A stretch of DNA of 33,454 nucleotides, from positions 1-33,454 of the forward strand of contig JAFQLU010000016.1 in NCBI GenBank assembly GCA_017396465.1, written 5' to 3'. Made by a program: the position numbers and the translations under genes. Within the stretch, counting starts at the first letter, position 1. Each line of letters opens with the position of its first letter. This document shows, piece after piece, positions 16,078-20,611 of the stretch. The notes beneath the pieces are model-generated. The model did no database searches and was not told the DNA's origin. It worked only from the letters and a program-made list of their open reading frames with translations. Origin of the DNA: Clostridia bacterium. GTDB taxonomy: Bacteria > Bacillota > Clostridia > UBA1381 > UBA9506.

Positions 16078-16907
16078 TTATGCTTCTATGGCAACCAGCA
16101 CGCCATGCTCTTCCGCGTAATAGGAGCAAAGCACGCCACACGGTTCTATGAAAACATCCGCTGTGTCAAACTCCGCTGAAATCAAACCTTTCAGTTCTTC
16201 CGCAAATGCTTCGTTGTTATTATGCGCAATCCGTACCTTGCCGCCCGAATATCCGGCAGCTTTGATTTGTTCGTATAAATTCAGCATAGCCTTCTTCTTC
16301 CCCTTCGGCTTCGCTAAAGGCTCCAGCGTTCCCACCTCCGATGCTGTTCCGACAATTCTGATACCCAAAAGACCTACAAGGTGGGCAACCGCCGGGCTTA
16401 CTCTGCCGTTTCTCGCAAAATTCATAAGCGACTCCAAACAGAAAAAAGGCGTGTGTTCTTCTTATATTCTTCTATTTTTTGCACAATTTCATCAAAGGAA
16501 TTTCCTTCCGCACAAAGCGCACCGAGCTTTTCTATCAAAAGACGCAGCTCCGGTCCGGCTGAAAGAGAATCTATCACATGAATGTTTACATGTTTATTCA
16601 TGTTTTCATAAAGCATTTTTGCATTTACGCAAGCATTGTAGCTCCCGGAAAGTCCACTTGTAATGGCAACAGCAAAAATGGTATCTGCGCCGCGAAAGCT
16701 TTTCTGCCAGTCATAGATATTGGGGCAAGAGGTGTGGGTTTCTTCTTTCGTCGTCTTAAGCGCGTCCATCATATCGGAAATATCCGTTTCGGGCGCATCG
16801 ATATATTCTTCATTTCCTATGCGTACCGTAAGCGGCACACAGGCATAATCTGTATGTTCAAAATGATATACATTTGATGATGAATCTGAAACAATTTTAT
16901 ATTTCAT
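16078..16907 (-). pseudogene. DegV-family protein, split by a frameshift
   Basis: DegV/FakB proteins bind fatty acids for phospholipid synthesis. The N-terminal piece (16907 down to 16422, 161 residues) has the DegV start KYKIVSDSSSN, the TSCPN region and TSGLSGSYN. The C-terminal piece (16437 down to 16078) continues in another frame with ESLMNFARNGRVSPAVA, LGIRIVGTASE and GKVRIAHNNN. The whole is 830 bases, one short of 277 codons, about the normal DegV length. Adding one T to the six-T run at the junction (16444-16449 as A on the plus strand) restores RLFFCLESL, the expected family text. It may be a true inactivation, a sequencing error in a homopolymer, or less likely slippage. The ATG follows AAGGAGG and an excellent promoter. 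Confidence 0.85.
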
Positions 16908-16934
16908 AATTACCTCCTTATCATTTACATAACC

Positions 16935-16963
16935 ATTATACATAGTATTCAATACTATGTCAA
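16935..16963 (-). promoter_or_regulatory. Consensus sigma-A promoter of degV
   Basis: On the minus strand: TTGACA, exactly 17 bases, TATAAT, so both hexamers are perfect consensus. Transcription would begin near 16928, about 20 bases before the degV ATG. The spacer is filled by a perfect palindrome listed separately, so a strong promoter appears to be gated by a repressor. Confidence 0.9.
16940..16960. promoter_or_regulatory. Palindromic operator inside the degV promoter
   Basis: A perfect 9-3-9 inverted repeat (ACATAGTAT, TCA, ATACTATGT). It begins inside the -35 element and ends on the first base of the -10, so a bound dimer would block RNA polymerase. Size and symmetry fit a TetR-, GntR- or MarR-type dimer site. 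No candidate regulator is adjacent. Confidence 0.75.
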
Positions 16964-16983: not shown

Positions 16984-17025
16984 GCAAAAAAAGATGCTGA
17001 AACCACAACAGTTTCAGCATCTTTT
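16984..17025 (-). terminator. Terminator of the beta-lactamase-fold operon
   Basis: A perfect 15-base stem (AAAAGATGCTGAAAC with its complement at 17011-17025), a 7-base loop, followed on the minus strand by a T run. It lies just after the hydrolase stop and upstream of the degV promoter. Confidence 0.88.
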
Positions 17026-17035
17026 CGTATCTGTT

Positions 17036-18505
17036 TTATTTTTGTTTTCCCTGCGCGTAGCCTACATATTCGTCAAAGAAATCCTCTGCAGATTTGTCCA
17101 TATGGATTCCCACAAGGTTATCACGGAACCCGAAATTAATATAAAGATTTCCGAAATATTCGTCTATGGCCTGCACCTTCAGGCACAGCTTGTTGGGCGT
17201 TACCCAGGCTGCAGAAAATGCGCTTCTGTACCGACGGGTGCCGGTCTTGGTTCCCATCTCGTTGGAATAGCCGTCCTGGGGGAATTCGCCGAACACATTT
17301 TCGCACATACCAAAGGGAATTTCCTTTTCGCCCTGTGCGTTGATGTAGCGAAATACACCTTTGTTCCCTTCAAAGGTTAAGGTAAATTCACGGATGCCGG
17401 AGGGGCTTTCGTCCAGCACATAGGTCACGCCGTTTACTTTTTCTTTCCATTCCGAATCAGTTTCGCCAATGGCGGTCAGCAGTTTTCTGGTTTTGCTGTA
17501 TTCAGCAAGTTCTCTTTGCGCCGCTTCGTTTTCCGGAATTGCGCCATCCTCAACCGTTCTCACAATCAAACGGAAGAAATCGTCAAAGATATATTTTTTT
17601 GCATAATCCTTACCCTGATTATCCCCATTGTAAATCAGAATGATGTCTTTATCCGGCACACATATTGCAAACTGACAGCCCATGCCGTAGAAACAGAAGC
17701 TGTTATCATAAGTTCTCCATATCTGATATCCGTAGCCCTGACAGTCGTGACCGTTTCCGTTCATATGGTCATTGTCAATCTGCCGCGCCGTTGCGGCTCT
17801 GAGGTATGCCTCATTCAGAATCTGCTCGCCGTTCCAGGAGCCGTAATTCATCGTAAATCTTGCAATCTTCAGCATATCGATGGGACGGAACACAGCCGCA
17901 GAATCACCCCAGGTGTGACCGCCGGGACATTTTAAGAAATAGTTTTCCTCGGAAACACCGATTTTGGAAAACAGCTTTTCCGTCAGATATTCCTTTAAGG
18001 TTTTGCCCGTCAGCCGTTCTACCAATGCACCCATAATAAAGGAGCCTTCGCTGTCATACTCATAAATAGTCCCGGAAGGGCGGGTTACCTTGTTATCATT
18101 TTCAAAATAGTGACGCACGCGATCCTCGGGCTTATCCGCAAACCAGTTGCCGGCAGGCTTTGCCGTACTCATCATCAGCATATGGCGAATGGTCTGATTG
18201 TGCATATTTTCATCCGGCTGATTTTTGATTTCCTCGGGAAAATATTTCGCAATCTTATCATCTAAATCAATCATGCCGTCCTGCTCTAAAAAGCCGATGG
18301 CAATGGACACAATGCTCTTCGTAACGGAATACTGTCTGTGACAGAAATCCCGATGGAAAGGCGCCCAGTAATTTTCGTAAAGAATATCGTTGCCGCGGGC
18401 TAAAATAATGTCGTGCGTTGCAAGACGGGCATCCTCTAAAATCTGAATATATTCCAGAATGTTTTCGGAGCGAATGCCTTGCGACTCCGGTGTTGCATAG
18501 TTCAT
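17036..18505 (-). CDS. Serine beta-lactamase-fold hydrolase
   Basis: A 489-residue protein of the beta-lactamase-like (class C/EstB, PF00144-type) family. The catalytic SxxK is SVTK (60-63) and the second motif is YDS (150-152), so the active site looks intact. There is no signal peptide, so it is probably cytoplasmic. About 150 residues after the catalytic domain form a beta-rich extension. True beta-lactamase activity is unlikely; family members are often esterases or peptidases. I start at the ATG at 18505, which follows AGGAGG at ideal spacing; the longer reading runs into the upstream gene. It is 16 bases after the zinc-ribbon gene and shares its promoter. Confidence 0.85.
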   Translation of the reverse strand: MNYATPESQGIRSENILEYIQILEDARLATHDIILARGNDILYENYWAPFHRDFCHRQYSVTKSIVSIAIGFLEQDGMIDLDDKIAKYFPEEIKNQPDENMHNQTIRHMLMMSTAKPAGNWFADKPEDRVRHYFENDNKVTRPSGTIYEYDSEGSFIMGALVERLTGKTLKEYLTEKLFSKIGVSEENYFLKCPGGHTWGDSAAVFRPIDMLKIARFTMNYGSWNGEQILNEAYLRAATARQIDNDHMNGNGHDCQGYGYQIWRTYDNSFCFYGMGCQFAICVPDKDIILIYNGDNQGKDYAKKYIFDDFFRLIVRTVEDGAIPENEAAQRELAEYSKTRKLLTAIGETDSEWKEKVNGVTYVLDESPSGIREFTLTFEGNKGVFRYINAQGEKEIPFGMCENVFGEFPQDGYSNEMGTKTGTRRYRSAFSAAWVTPNKLCLKVQAIDEYFGNLYINFGFRDNLVGIHMDKSAEDFFDEYVGYAQGKQK

Positions 18506-18521
18506 GATTATTCCTCCTGAT

Positions 18522-18857
18522 TTATGTATTCTTTTTATCTGTTTTATTTTTCTTATCATAAGACCGTGCGCAAACAGAAAGTATGATGCTGTTTATCGTC
18601 CCAAGCACAATAATCCATACCACTACAGACGCAACAATCCCAATCCAGTACGCTTTTCCGCTGAACGAAATCAGCATACTATCATGTGCCACGCGCCAGA
18701 GGGCATAGGTCAACAAAAAGCTCATAGCCTGCCAGAATTTCACTTTGCCGGAAAAAGGCTTTATTGGATTTTCGCCACAATGCTCACACGGATATTTTCC
18801 TATTCTGAAAATATTGTACTTTGTTTTCTTGCCGCAAATGCCGCATTTTATTTTCAC
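18522..18857 (-). CDS. Zinc-ribbon membrane protein, unknown function
   Basis: A 111-residue protein with an N-terminal zinc ribbon (Cys5, Cys8, Cys24 and Cys27) and two hydrophobic helices (about 43-60 and 70-95), ending in a Lys/Asp-rich tail. I do not recognise a named family. The start is a GTG at 18857 behind an unusually G-rich site (GGAAGGGGGGG). It is the first gene of a two-gene transcript with the beta-lactamase-fold hydrolase, 16 bases ahead of it. Confidence 0.7.
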   Translation of the reverse strand: MKIKCGICGKKTKYNIFRIGKYPCEHCGENPIKPFSGKVKFWQAMSFLLTYALWRVAHDSMLISFSGKAYWIGIVASVVVWIIVLGTINSIILSVCARSYDKKNKTDKKNT

Positions 18858-19092: not shown

Positions 19093-19443
19093 TTGGATAT
19101 ATCCGTACTCATCCAAAGAAAAACATTGATTGTTACCCTGCGTGGCGAGCTGGATCATCATAGTGCAGGCAACGTGAAAGAATTGTTAGAGGAGCTGATT
19201 AAAAACCGCGGACCGGAAAATCTGATTTTTGATTTCACGAACCTGACCTTTATGGACAGTTCCGGTGTAGGCATGCTGATCGGGCGGTATAAGCTGATTT
19301 CCGCCATTGGAGGAAAGGTTTGCATCTGCGGTGCCTCACGCACGGTGGACAGGCTCCTTACCATGTCCGGTATCAAGAAAATCATCGCAACCTACCAAAC
19401 GGCAGAAGACGCTCTTAATCGGTTAGAGGAGGTGGTATCTTAA
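19093..19443 (+). CDS. spoIIAA: Anti-sigma F factor antagonist SpoIIAA
   Basis: A 116-residue STAS-domain protein. It has the family strands (LIVTLRGELDHHSAG) and the phosphorylation motif FMDSSGVGMLIGRYK, in which the second Ser (Ser57) corresponds to Ser58 of B. subtilis SpoIIAA. Unphosphorylated SpoIIAA frees sigma-F from SpoIIAB in the forespore. The start is a TTG with GGAGG 7 bases upstream. It ends in TAATG, overlapping spoIIAB by one base. Confidence 0.95.
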   Translation: MDISVLIQRKTLIVTLRGELDHHSAGNVKELLEELIKNRGPENLIFDFTNLTFMDSSGVGMLIGRYKLISAIGGKVCICGASRTVDRLLTMSGIKKIIATYQTAEDALNRLEEVVS

Positions 19444-19883
19444 TGAACAACAGCATGCATCTGGAATTTTTGAGCATTTCGGAAAATGAAAGCTTTGCCC
19501 GTGCGGCGGTGGCGGCGTTTGCCGCGCAGTTAGACCCCACCATGGACGAGCTGGACGATATCAAAACCTCCGTATCCGAGGCGGTGACCAATGCCATTGT
19601 GCACGGTTATGGTGATGCCGTTGGCACGGTACATATCTCCTGCGTGCTTTCGGGCAACGTCATCACCGTTACTGTATCCGACCGCGGGCGTGGCATTGAA
19701 GATGTTTCCCTTGCCCGGACTCCGCTTTTCACCGGTGCAAAGGGCAGCGAGCGTTCCGGTCTGGGCTTTACGGTGATGGAGACCTTTATGGACAGCATTG
19801 AAGTATTGAGCACACCGGGAGAAGGCACGATTGTTACCATGTGGAAACGCATTTCTACTCTTCCGCAGGCGGCATGTGTGTGA
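19443..19883 (+). CDS. spoIIAB: Anti-sigma F factor SpoIIAB (kinase)
   Basis: A 146-residue GHKL-fold protein kinase that binds sigma-F and phosphorylates SpoIIAA. Visible are the N box (SVSEAVTNAIVHGY, with Glu46 and Asn50), G1 (SDRGRGI, 79-85) and G2 (GSERSGLGFTVME, from 101). The length is normal. The ATG overlaps the spoIIAA stop and the 3' end overlaps sigF by 10 bases, so the three proteins are translated in coupled fashion. Confidence 0.96.
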   Translation: MNNSMHLEFLSISENESFARAAVAAFAAQLDPTMDELDDIKTSVSEAVTNAIVHGYGDAVGTVHISCVLSGNVITVTVSDRGRGIEDVSLARTPLFTGAKGSERSGLGFTVMETFMDSIEVLSTPGEGTIVTMWKRISTLPQAACV

Positions 19884-20611
19884 GTAGTGCCGTGAAACCG
19901 TTTGACACAGAACGCATTGGCGAACTGATTCTCCGCGCGCAGCAAGGCGATAACGCGGCAAAAGAGCAGCTGATTTCCGAGCATATGGGGCTTGTTTACC
20001 GGATTGCTGCACGCTTTGTCGGTCGTGGTACAGACATAGAGGACTTACACCAGCTAGGTGCAATGGGGCTTCTTGCCGCTATTGAAAACTTTGACTGCTC
20101 CAAAGGCACACGGTTTTCCACATACGCCGTTCCGGTCATCACAGGCGAAATCAAGCGGCATTTCCGTGACCATGGTGCCATCAAGGTCAGCCGCAGCTTA
20201 AAAGCAATTGCCGGCCACGCCGCCCGTGTGACGGAAGAATTTCAGGCACGATGCGGCAGAACGCCCACCATAAGCGAGCTGGCCGGGGAGCTTAAGGTTT
20301 CCAAAGAAGAGCTGGTGCAGGCGGTGGAAGCAAACGCCCCGGTGCGTTCCTTTTCCGAACCTTTGGGGGATGATAACGCCACACTTGCCGAAACCATCCC
20401 CGCACCCGACACTGCACCGCTTCTTTTAGAGCGGTTGGACATTGCCTCCGCCATAAGCAAGCTTTCCGACCGTGAACAAATCATTTTGCATTTGCGGTTT
20501 GATGACGAAAAATCTCAATCATACATTGCAAAAAAACTGGGAATTTCTCAGGTGCAGGTCTCCCGATTGGAAAAGAAAATACTTCTCGCACTAAAAAATC
20601 AGTTAAAATAA
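19874..20611 (+). CDS. sigF: RNA polymerase sigma-F factor
   Basis: A 245-residue sigma factor for the first forespore genes. Region 2 is seen in EHMGLVYRIAARFVG, DLHQLGAMGLLAAIENFD and FSTYAVPVITGEIKR, region 3 around KVSRSLK and region 4 in LSDREQIILHLRF and ISQVQVSRLEKKIL, the last nearly identical to B. subtilis SigF. I take the ATG at 19874, which overlaps the spoIIAB stop; GTG starts at 19841, 19880 or 19892 are also possible. The Shine-Dalgarno site is weak (AGGCGG), suggesting coupling to spoIIAB. A spoVA operon, often next in relatives, does not follow. Confidence 0.95.
   Translation: MCVSSAVKPFDTERIGELILRAQQGDNAAKEQLISEHMGLVYRIAARFVGRGTDIEDLHQLGAMGLLAAIENFDCSKGTRFSTYAVPVITGEIKRHFRDHGAIKVSRSLKAIAGHAARVTEEFQARCGRTPTISELAGELKVSKEELVQAVEANAPVRSFSEPLGDDNATLAETIPAPDTAPLLLERLDIASAISKLSDREQIILHLRFDDEKSQSYIAKKLGISQVQVSRLEKKILLALKNQLK

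What the first reader, a model, noticed from the sequence alone, without database searches (positions are those of the whole stretch)
16935..16963. Perfect sigma-A promoter with a perfect palindrome in its spacer
The degV promoter is consensus at both hexamers with 17-base spacing, yet a 9-3-9 palindrome fills the spacer and touches both elements. This is the geometry of a tight repressor switch. Fatty-acid-binding DegV/FakB genes can be controlled by lipid-responsive repressors, but no regulator is adjacent and I cannot match this operator to a known one.
Basis: partly seen in the sequence, partly recalled or inferred. Interest (0 to 1): 0.55.

Follow-up and report, generated by a model that had tools for sequence, protein, structure and literature searches.

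The report
Operator of an unstudied DUF1836 regulator
The palindrome in this promoter is very probably the docking site of an unstudied family of bacterial regulator proteins (DUF1836) that appears to control fatty-acid-binding (DegV) and membrane (hemolysin-III-like) genes in many bacteria.

Summary
In detail: a perfect 9-3-9 palindrome (16940-16960) fills the spacer of TTGACA-17-TATAAT before degV (minus strand). Both other genomes of the genus held keep this promoter at the orthologous degV: hexamers and 17 of 18 arm positions are identical, the 3-nt centre and flanks differ. The window's genome has one further copy within 3 mismatches, before a second degV and beside a divergent DUF1836 (PF08876) gene. 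DUF1836 is probably the missing regulator. In 94 non-redundant DUF1836 loci, 46 carry the window's core upstream (shuffle mean 2.25; control patterns 2-8). In 49 held-out loci a refined site occurs in 19 (shuffle mean 0.05). Exact sites precede degV or hlyIII in 13 of 17 examined loci from DUF1836-bearing relatives and 0 of 15 from relatives without. Of 79 sites, 42 have TTGACA exactly 35 nt from the centre in the direction away from DUF1836, so the site overlaps the -10 and start. DUF1836 is modelled with a MerR-like domain. Binding, repression and any lipid signal are inferred. One paper suggested that DUF1836 regulates hemolysin III; I found no described operator.

The parts
16940..16960 (.). 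Operator: 21-bp dyad ACATAGTAT-TCA-ATACTATGT, proposed DUF1836 binding site
   Evidence: conserved in G001 and G002; same core beside DUF1836 genes
16958..16963 (-). -35 hexamer TTGACA, last three bases shared with the operator
16935..16940 (-). -10 hexamer TATAAT, first base shared with the operator
16913..16919 (-). Ribosome binding site AAGGAGG
   Evidence: Sequence
16078..16907 (-). degV (called degV-B here), the controlled gene; reading frame broken near 16440 in this assembly
   Evidence: PF02645 in two pieces; ORFs; intact 280-aa orthologues in G001 and G002
16992..17022 (.). Hairpin with flanking A and T runs, likely terminator between the beta-lactamase-family gene (17036-18559) and degV, so degV has its own promoter
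   Evidence: Read from the sequence; not scored with a tool

Best explanation
The palindrome is the operator of a DUF1836 (PF08876) transcription factor. A DUF1836 dimer with a MerR/GlnR-like winged-helix domain binds ATCTAGTwT-nnn-AwACTAGAT; the window's site is the variant ACATAGTAT-nnn-ATACTATGT. Binding would shut off sigma-A promoters of degV (FakB-type) genes and of hlyIII. There are two promoter layouts. In the common one the operator centre lies 35 nt from the start of the -35, so it overlaps the -10 and covers the expected start site. At the window's degV-B the operator fills the 17-nt spacer and its ends double as parts of the -35 and -10. The only DUF1836 gene found in this incomplete genome lies on another contig (C1), divergent from a second degV. 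Shown by sequence: the site, its conservation, its association with DUF1836, the target genes, the fixed geometry. Predicted: the fold. Inferred: binding, repression, and a fatty-acid or membrane-state signal.
For: Conserved arms with drifting centre and flanks in three species. Own genome: two places within 3 mismatches, both before degV genes, one in the DUF1836-degV intergenic region. 94 DUF1836 loci: core in 46, coding 0, shuffle mean 2.25 (max 5), eight control patterns 2-8. Held out, 49 loci: refined site at <=3 mismatches in 19 (shuffle mean 0.05), at <=4 in 22 (0.5), spacing and order controls 0-2. Exact sites before degV/hlyIII: 13 of 17 examined in DUF1836+ relatives, 0 of 15 in DUF1836- relatives. 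Sites in trans where DUF1836 is not linked: degV-A of G011, G013, G015, G017, G018, G019 and the DUF1292-hlyIII unit of G013, G015, G018. Operator type follows regulator type: ATCGGTTTTT-type dyad beside the clade-B DUF1836 in 3 of 4 such loci, A-type at degV-B of G011, which has one DUF1836 match. Geometry: TTGACA at exactly -35 in 42 of 79 sites, the other 99 offsets together 56, largest 8; 12 of 16 drawn promoters. Fold: pLDDT 92, VIA-align rows 1-22 all MerR family.
Against: No binding or expression data. 48 of 94 and 30 of 49 DUF1836 loci lack the site at the thresholds used; some control genes in trans, others are unexplained. G005 and G014 have DUF1836 but no convincing site at degV or hlyIII, and G019 none at hlyIII. 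The window's spacer layout occurs in 0 of 79 sites, only at the three genus degV-B promoters. The 94-locus set includes the loci where I first saw the link. DUF1836- relatives also hold fewer targets (2 of 19 lack degV; 4 of 6 lack hlyIII), which lowers the weight of 0 of 15. The window degV's frame is broken in this assembly. Foldseek alone gave no match at E <= 0.001.
Confidence: 0.8

Rival explanations
1. DUF1836 binds the site but activates, as classical MerR proteins do by twisting a promoter with an over-long spacer.
For: MerR-like modelled fold and, in the window, a dyad lying in the spacer.
Against: Spacers are 17 nt in the 16 promoters drawn, though the script's scoring favoured 17. 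TTGACA/TATAAT in the window needs no help by sequence. The common layout covers the -10 and start site.
Confidence: 0.1
2. Another regulator owns the site: FapR, whose operator fapO (TTAGTATCAGGTACTAA) matches the core with one mismatch, or the TetR-like gene next to degV-B in G002.
For: fapO sequence as quoted in PMC5788913 and PMC7372789. A TetR-like gene (my reading, not scanned) lies just upstream of degV-B in G002.
Against: A full-length FapR-like protein was found in 1 of 18 DUF1836-bearing relatives (G055, below the curated cut-off); five others match only an N-terminal HTH stretch, 12 nothing. The TetR-like gene is not at this place in the window (beta-lactamase family) or in G001 (an argB-like gene by my reading).
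Confidence: 0.06
3. Chance palindrome in a strong promoter.
For: A perfect 9-3-9 dyad is expected about 0.1 times per window; reversed-pattern counts are as high genome-wide.
Against: Conserved arms in three species, and the same dyad beside DUF1836 across the phylum.
Confidence: 0.01

Closest known systems
DUF1836 (PF08876) as a suggested regulator of hemolysin III (PMC3146951, passages read)
   Same: Same protein family, and the same neighbours: that paper reports STRING links of hemolysin III with DUF1836 and with DegV and suggests that DUF1836 may regulate hemolysin III.
   Different: The passages give no operator, no degV target of DUF1836, no promoter geometry and no regulon.
FapR/fapO
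   Same: Lipid-gene repressor (recalled); fapO matches the core with one mismatch.
   Different: Different protein family; FapR is not found in 17 of 18 DUF1836-bearing relatives as a full-length match; the site here is longer, with other ends.
MerR/GlnR family regulators
   Same: Modelled winged-helix domain superposes on GlnR, CueR, SoxR and others.
   Different: 17-nt spacers and an operator over the -10/start or filling an optimal spacer, rather than a 19-20-nt spacer with activation (the classical mode, recalled).
FabT control of S. pyogenes fakB4 (PMC10138225, abstract and section list)
   Same: A lipid-gene regulator controlling a DegV/FakB gene.
   Different: FabT is a MarR protein (recalled); regulator and operator here are different.

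Membership tests
DUF1836 regulator | PF08876 match of the proposed regulator in the window's own genome | tested here: met
   L003:4243-4821, 100.7 bits, cut-off 27; single match in this 54.6% complete genome
DUF1836 regulator | The window's dyad recurs at DUF1836 loci more than chance | tested here: met
   46 of 94; held-out 19 of 49
DUF1836 regulator | Direct binding to the dyad | not testable with these tools
   Needs EMSA or footprinting
MerR family | MerR-type winged-helix fold | tested here: met
   AlphaFold2 pLDDT 92; VIA-align rows 1-22 all MerR family, best GlnR-DNA Z 8.7, 2.6 A over 68 residues; row 23 (unrelated) Z 5.5. Prediction only, and the tool warns that middling Z can be a common arrangement
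MerR family | Operator in a 19-20-nt spacer (recalled definition of the classical activating mode) | tested here: not met
   17-nt spacers in the 16 promoters drawn
MerR family | C-terminal dimerisation helix | tested here: inconclusive
   Long helices 116-149 and 156-181 in the monomer model; no dimer modelled
FapR regulon | FapR gene in the genomes that carry the site | tested here: not met
   NF003359: no match in own genome (54.6% complete); full-length in 1 of 18 DUF1836-bearing relatives, below cut-off
FakB (fatty-acid-binding DegV) | DegV domain | tested here: met
   PF02645 in two pieces in the window; degV-A 262.8 bits
FakB (fatty-acid-binding DegV) | A FakA-type kinase in the genome | tested here: met
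   PF02734 (Dak2) in 7 of 7 genomes searched, own included; FakA rather than another Dak2 protein is inferred from length
FakB (fatty-acid-binding DegV) | Binds fatty acid and hands it to FakA | not testable with these tools
   Needs biochemistry

The most novel reading that the evidence does not exclude
DUF1836 is a widespread, unrecognised repressor that senses fatty acids or membrane state and defines a conserved lipid regulon (FakB-type DegV proteins plus the hemolysin III/PAQR membrane protein) in Bacillota. It reads a fapO-like dyad with a MerR-like fold, and duplicated DUF1836 copies have evolved a separate operator code (TAGT against GGTT), so paralogous degV genes are rewired by swapping operators.
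Probability: 0.5. Interest if true: 0.75.

Novelty: new variant of a known kind. Interest (0 to 1): 0.62.

Why it matters
It gives a domain of unknown function, found in 59 of 398 sampled genomes of the phylum, a predicted role, a DNA code and a compact regulon, all directly testable. It suggests a transcriptional layer over FakB-type DegV proteins besides FabT, and ties the poorly understood hemolysin III/PAQR proteins to DegV, a clue that both serve one membrane-lipid task.

Tried and rejected
FapR as owner of the site: the core resembles fapO, but a full-length FapR-like protein is found in 1 of 18 genomes. TetR-like neighbour in G002: not at this place in the other two genomes. Chance. Classical MerR activation: 17-nt spacers. 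The first relatives scan at <=3 mismatches was swamped by chance hits (the reversed control was often as frequent, and the listing was cut), so I used positions, not counts. Foldseek alone gave nothing at E <= 0.001; no PDB relative of DUF1836 by sequence (best E 0.83). Loci without the site showed no single alternative dyad apart from the B-type of clade B. The B-type pattern gave 0 of 49 in the held-out set. The hlyIII genes of G000, G001 and G002 have 2-mismatch core matches upstream; they are lopsided and hold a TATACT that looks like a -10, so I did not count them as sites. The 2-mismatch match at one degV of G009 (L184) also looks like a -10. Papers: DUF1836 occurs in 5 papers of the library; I read passages of four (PMC3146951, PMC12688256, PMC9143085, PMC10684713) and saw the fifth (PMC6164354) only in the listing. 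Other searches showed no DUF1836 operator in their listings.

Full report
Observation. The minus strand reads TTGACA-TAGTATTGAATACTATG-TATAAT, then AAGGAGG and ATG (first base 16907). The 21-bp dyad 16940-16960 overlaps the last three bases of the -35 and the first base of the -10. It is unique in the window at <=3 mismatches. As a bare dyad it is only mildly unlikely: 1 against a shuffle mean of 0.1.

Conservation. Two other genomes of the genus are held. Both carry the same promoter with the dyad in the spacer at the degV orthologue (G001:C20, G002:C110). In the three-way alignment both hexamers and 17 of 18 arm positions are identical; the exception is one base near the end of the second arm in G001. 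The three central bases and the flanks differ. The window's first degV piece is 68% and 65% identical to the two orthologues over 155 residues. This is the pattern expected of a two-armed protein-binding site.

Second site and candidate regulator. The genome (1.96 Mb, 140 contigs, 54.6% complete) has one further place at <=3 mismatches, G000:C1:23919. Its centre lies 30 bp before the ATG of another degV, in the intergenic region shared with a divergent gene for DUF1836, PF08876, 100.7 bits. The same arrangement is present in G001 and G002. In G035, G040 and G055, of other genera, the site lies between DUF1836 and a divergent hlyIII (PF03006 scanned for G035 and G055 and found for all three).

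Statistics. DUF1836 loci were taken without regard to the motif: 22 from relatives and the best 80 from genome contigs (query A1). That is 102, or 94 without near-duplicates. The set includes the few loci where I first saw the link. The window's core TAGTATnnnATACTA at <=2 mismatches lies in -250..+20 of 46 of 94. The coding control is 0 of 94, dinucleotide shuffles average 2.25 (max 5), and eight control patterns (other spacings, reversed, swapped arms, other dyads) give 2-8. The consensus of the sites is ATCTAGTwT-nnn-AwACTAGAT. For a held-out test I drew 398 genomes of the phylum, 59 with a DUF1836 match; 56 loci were used, 49 after removing near-duplicates of each other and of the first set. 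The refined site at <=3 mismatches is in 19 of 49 (shuffle mean 0.05), at <=4 in 22 of 49 (0.5); its spacing, reversed and swapped controls at <=4 give 0-2. By a looser rule (refined <=4 or core <=2) 26 loci have a site: a degV or hlyIII neighbour was found at 17 of these 26 and at 3 of the 23 others.

Regulon. In 18 relatives with DUF1836 (own genome included) the exact pattern TAGTWTnnnAWACTA occurs 22 times, no oftener than the reversed control; position is what matters. Sixteen lie upstream of degV, hlyIII or a DUF1292-hlyIII unit; 13 of these are among the 17 examined, and the other three are the window, G002:C110 and G011:C21. One precedes prfA in G040. Three lie inside reading frames, and two appear by eye to lie at the end of one. 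In 25 of the 43 relatives without DUF1836 it occurs 16 times; none of the 15 examined precedes degV or hlyIII. A caution: some of these genomes lack degV or hlyIII. In 21 degV upstream regions of 17 genomes without DUF1836, one core match at <=2 mismatches was seen, a -10-like stretch in G009. In genus g4 the clade-A DUF1836 is not next to degV, yet degV-A of G011, G013, G015, G017, G018 and G019 carries the site, and so does the DUF1292-hlyIII unit of G013, G015 and G018 (weaker in G011, G016 and G017). G009, of the same genus but without a DUF1836 match, has no convincing site at degV or hlyIII. Exceptions: G005 and G014 have DUF1836 but no convincing site at these genes, and G019 has none at hlyIII.

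Operator code. G013, G016, G019 and G005 have a second, clade-B DUF1836 next to degV-B. In three of these four (not G005) the dyad there is of the type ATCGGTTTTTnAAAAACCGAT, perfect in G013 and G016, imperfect in G019. G011 has a single DUF1836 match and its degV-B carries an A-type dyad. So operator type follows regulator type. In the window's genus one DUF1836 was found per genome, and degV-B has the A-type site.

Promoter geometry. In 12 of 16 promoters drawn, the operator centre is 35 nt from the start of TTGACA (or TTGACT), the -10 being formed partly by the operator's end. The three degV-B promoters of the window's genus have the operator in the spacer (13 nt). G011 degV-B differs. Over 79 sites in 143 loci, the direction away from DUF1836 shows TTGACA (>=5 of 6) at exactly -35 in 42; the other 99 offsets hold 56 together, 8 at most. 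The spacer layout occurs in 0 of 79. Both layouts would block polymerase on promoters with optimal spacing, which argues for repression.

Protein. DUF1836 of L099, with 61 unchanged homologues, was modelled at mean pLDDT 92. Foldseek gave no match at E <= 0.001. VIA-align, re-ranking Foldseek's candidates, puts MerR-family structures in rows 1-22, led by GlnR-DNA (Z 8.7, 2.6 A, 68 residues); the first unrelated row has Z 5.5. By my reading helix 63-71 would be the recognition helix and KKKY the wing. No PDB relative by sequence.

Literature. PMC3146951 (passages) reports links of hemolysin III with DUF1836 and with DegV and suggests DUF1836 as its regulator. PMC12688256 (passage) lists DegV next to DUF1836 in L. 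ruminis. PMC9143085 and PMC10684713 (passages) only mention a DUF1836 gene. PMC10138225 (abstract and section list) says that S. pyogenes fakB4, a degV gene, is controlled by FabT. PMC5788913 and PMC7372789 (passages) quote fapO. PMC5958418 (passages) reports that a pneumococcal degV gene falls 3.7-fold under arachidonic acid.

Verdict. My estimates: a DUF1836 operator about 0.9; repression, given that, about 0.85-0.9; a lipid or membrane signal about 0.5. The general kind, a repressor-operator switch, is known. The role, operator and regulon of this family appear undescribed in the library searched.

Noticed in passing
window 16078-16907 (-): The degV frame is broken near a T-run around 16440: the DegV profile matches in two pieces in two frames, while G001 and G002 have intact 280-aa orthologues. 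Assembly error, decayed gene or phase variation cannot be told apart.
   Followed up: partly
L209 1508 (G040:C76:3804): An exact site with the common -35 geometry precedes prfA (peptide release factor 1) in one genome, a target outside degV/hlyIII.
   Followed up: partly
L218 1347-2319 (G013:C60): A DUF1292 gene and a hemolysin-III-like gene follow one site in tandem, with an M23-peptidase-like gene (my reading) and DUF1836 further down.
   Followed up: partly
L095 1846-1986; L098 1828-1970: Clade-B DUF1836 and divergent degV share an intergenic region with a perfect ATCGGTTTTT-type dyad, and L098 has a second near copy: a possible second operator code.
   Followed up: partly
L131, L138 (Paenibacillus): Near-dyads of the type ATrTAGTTA-TTA-TAACyAkAT lie some 210-240 bp upstream of DUF1836, in the region shared with a divergent degV about 380-400 bp away: perhaps a variant of the site.
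   Followed up: no
L216 1560; L217 1533: Exact core matches at what looks by eye like the same gene end in two genomes, probably from conserved coding sequence.
   Followed up: no
window 19443-20611 (+): A histidine-kinase-like ATPase gene followed by a sigma-70-type factor gene, SpoIIAB/sigma-F-like by my reading, suggesting a sporulating lineage.
   Followed up: no
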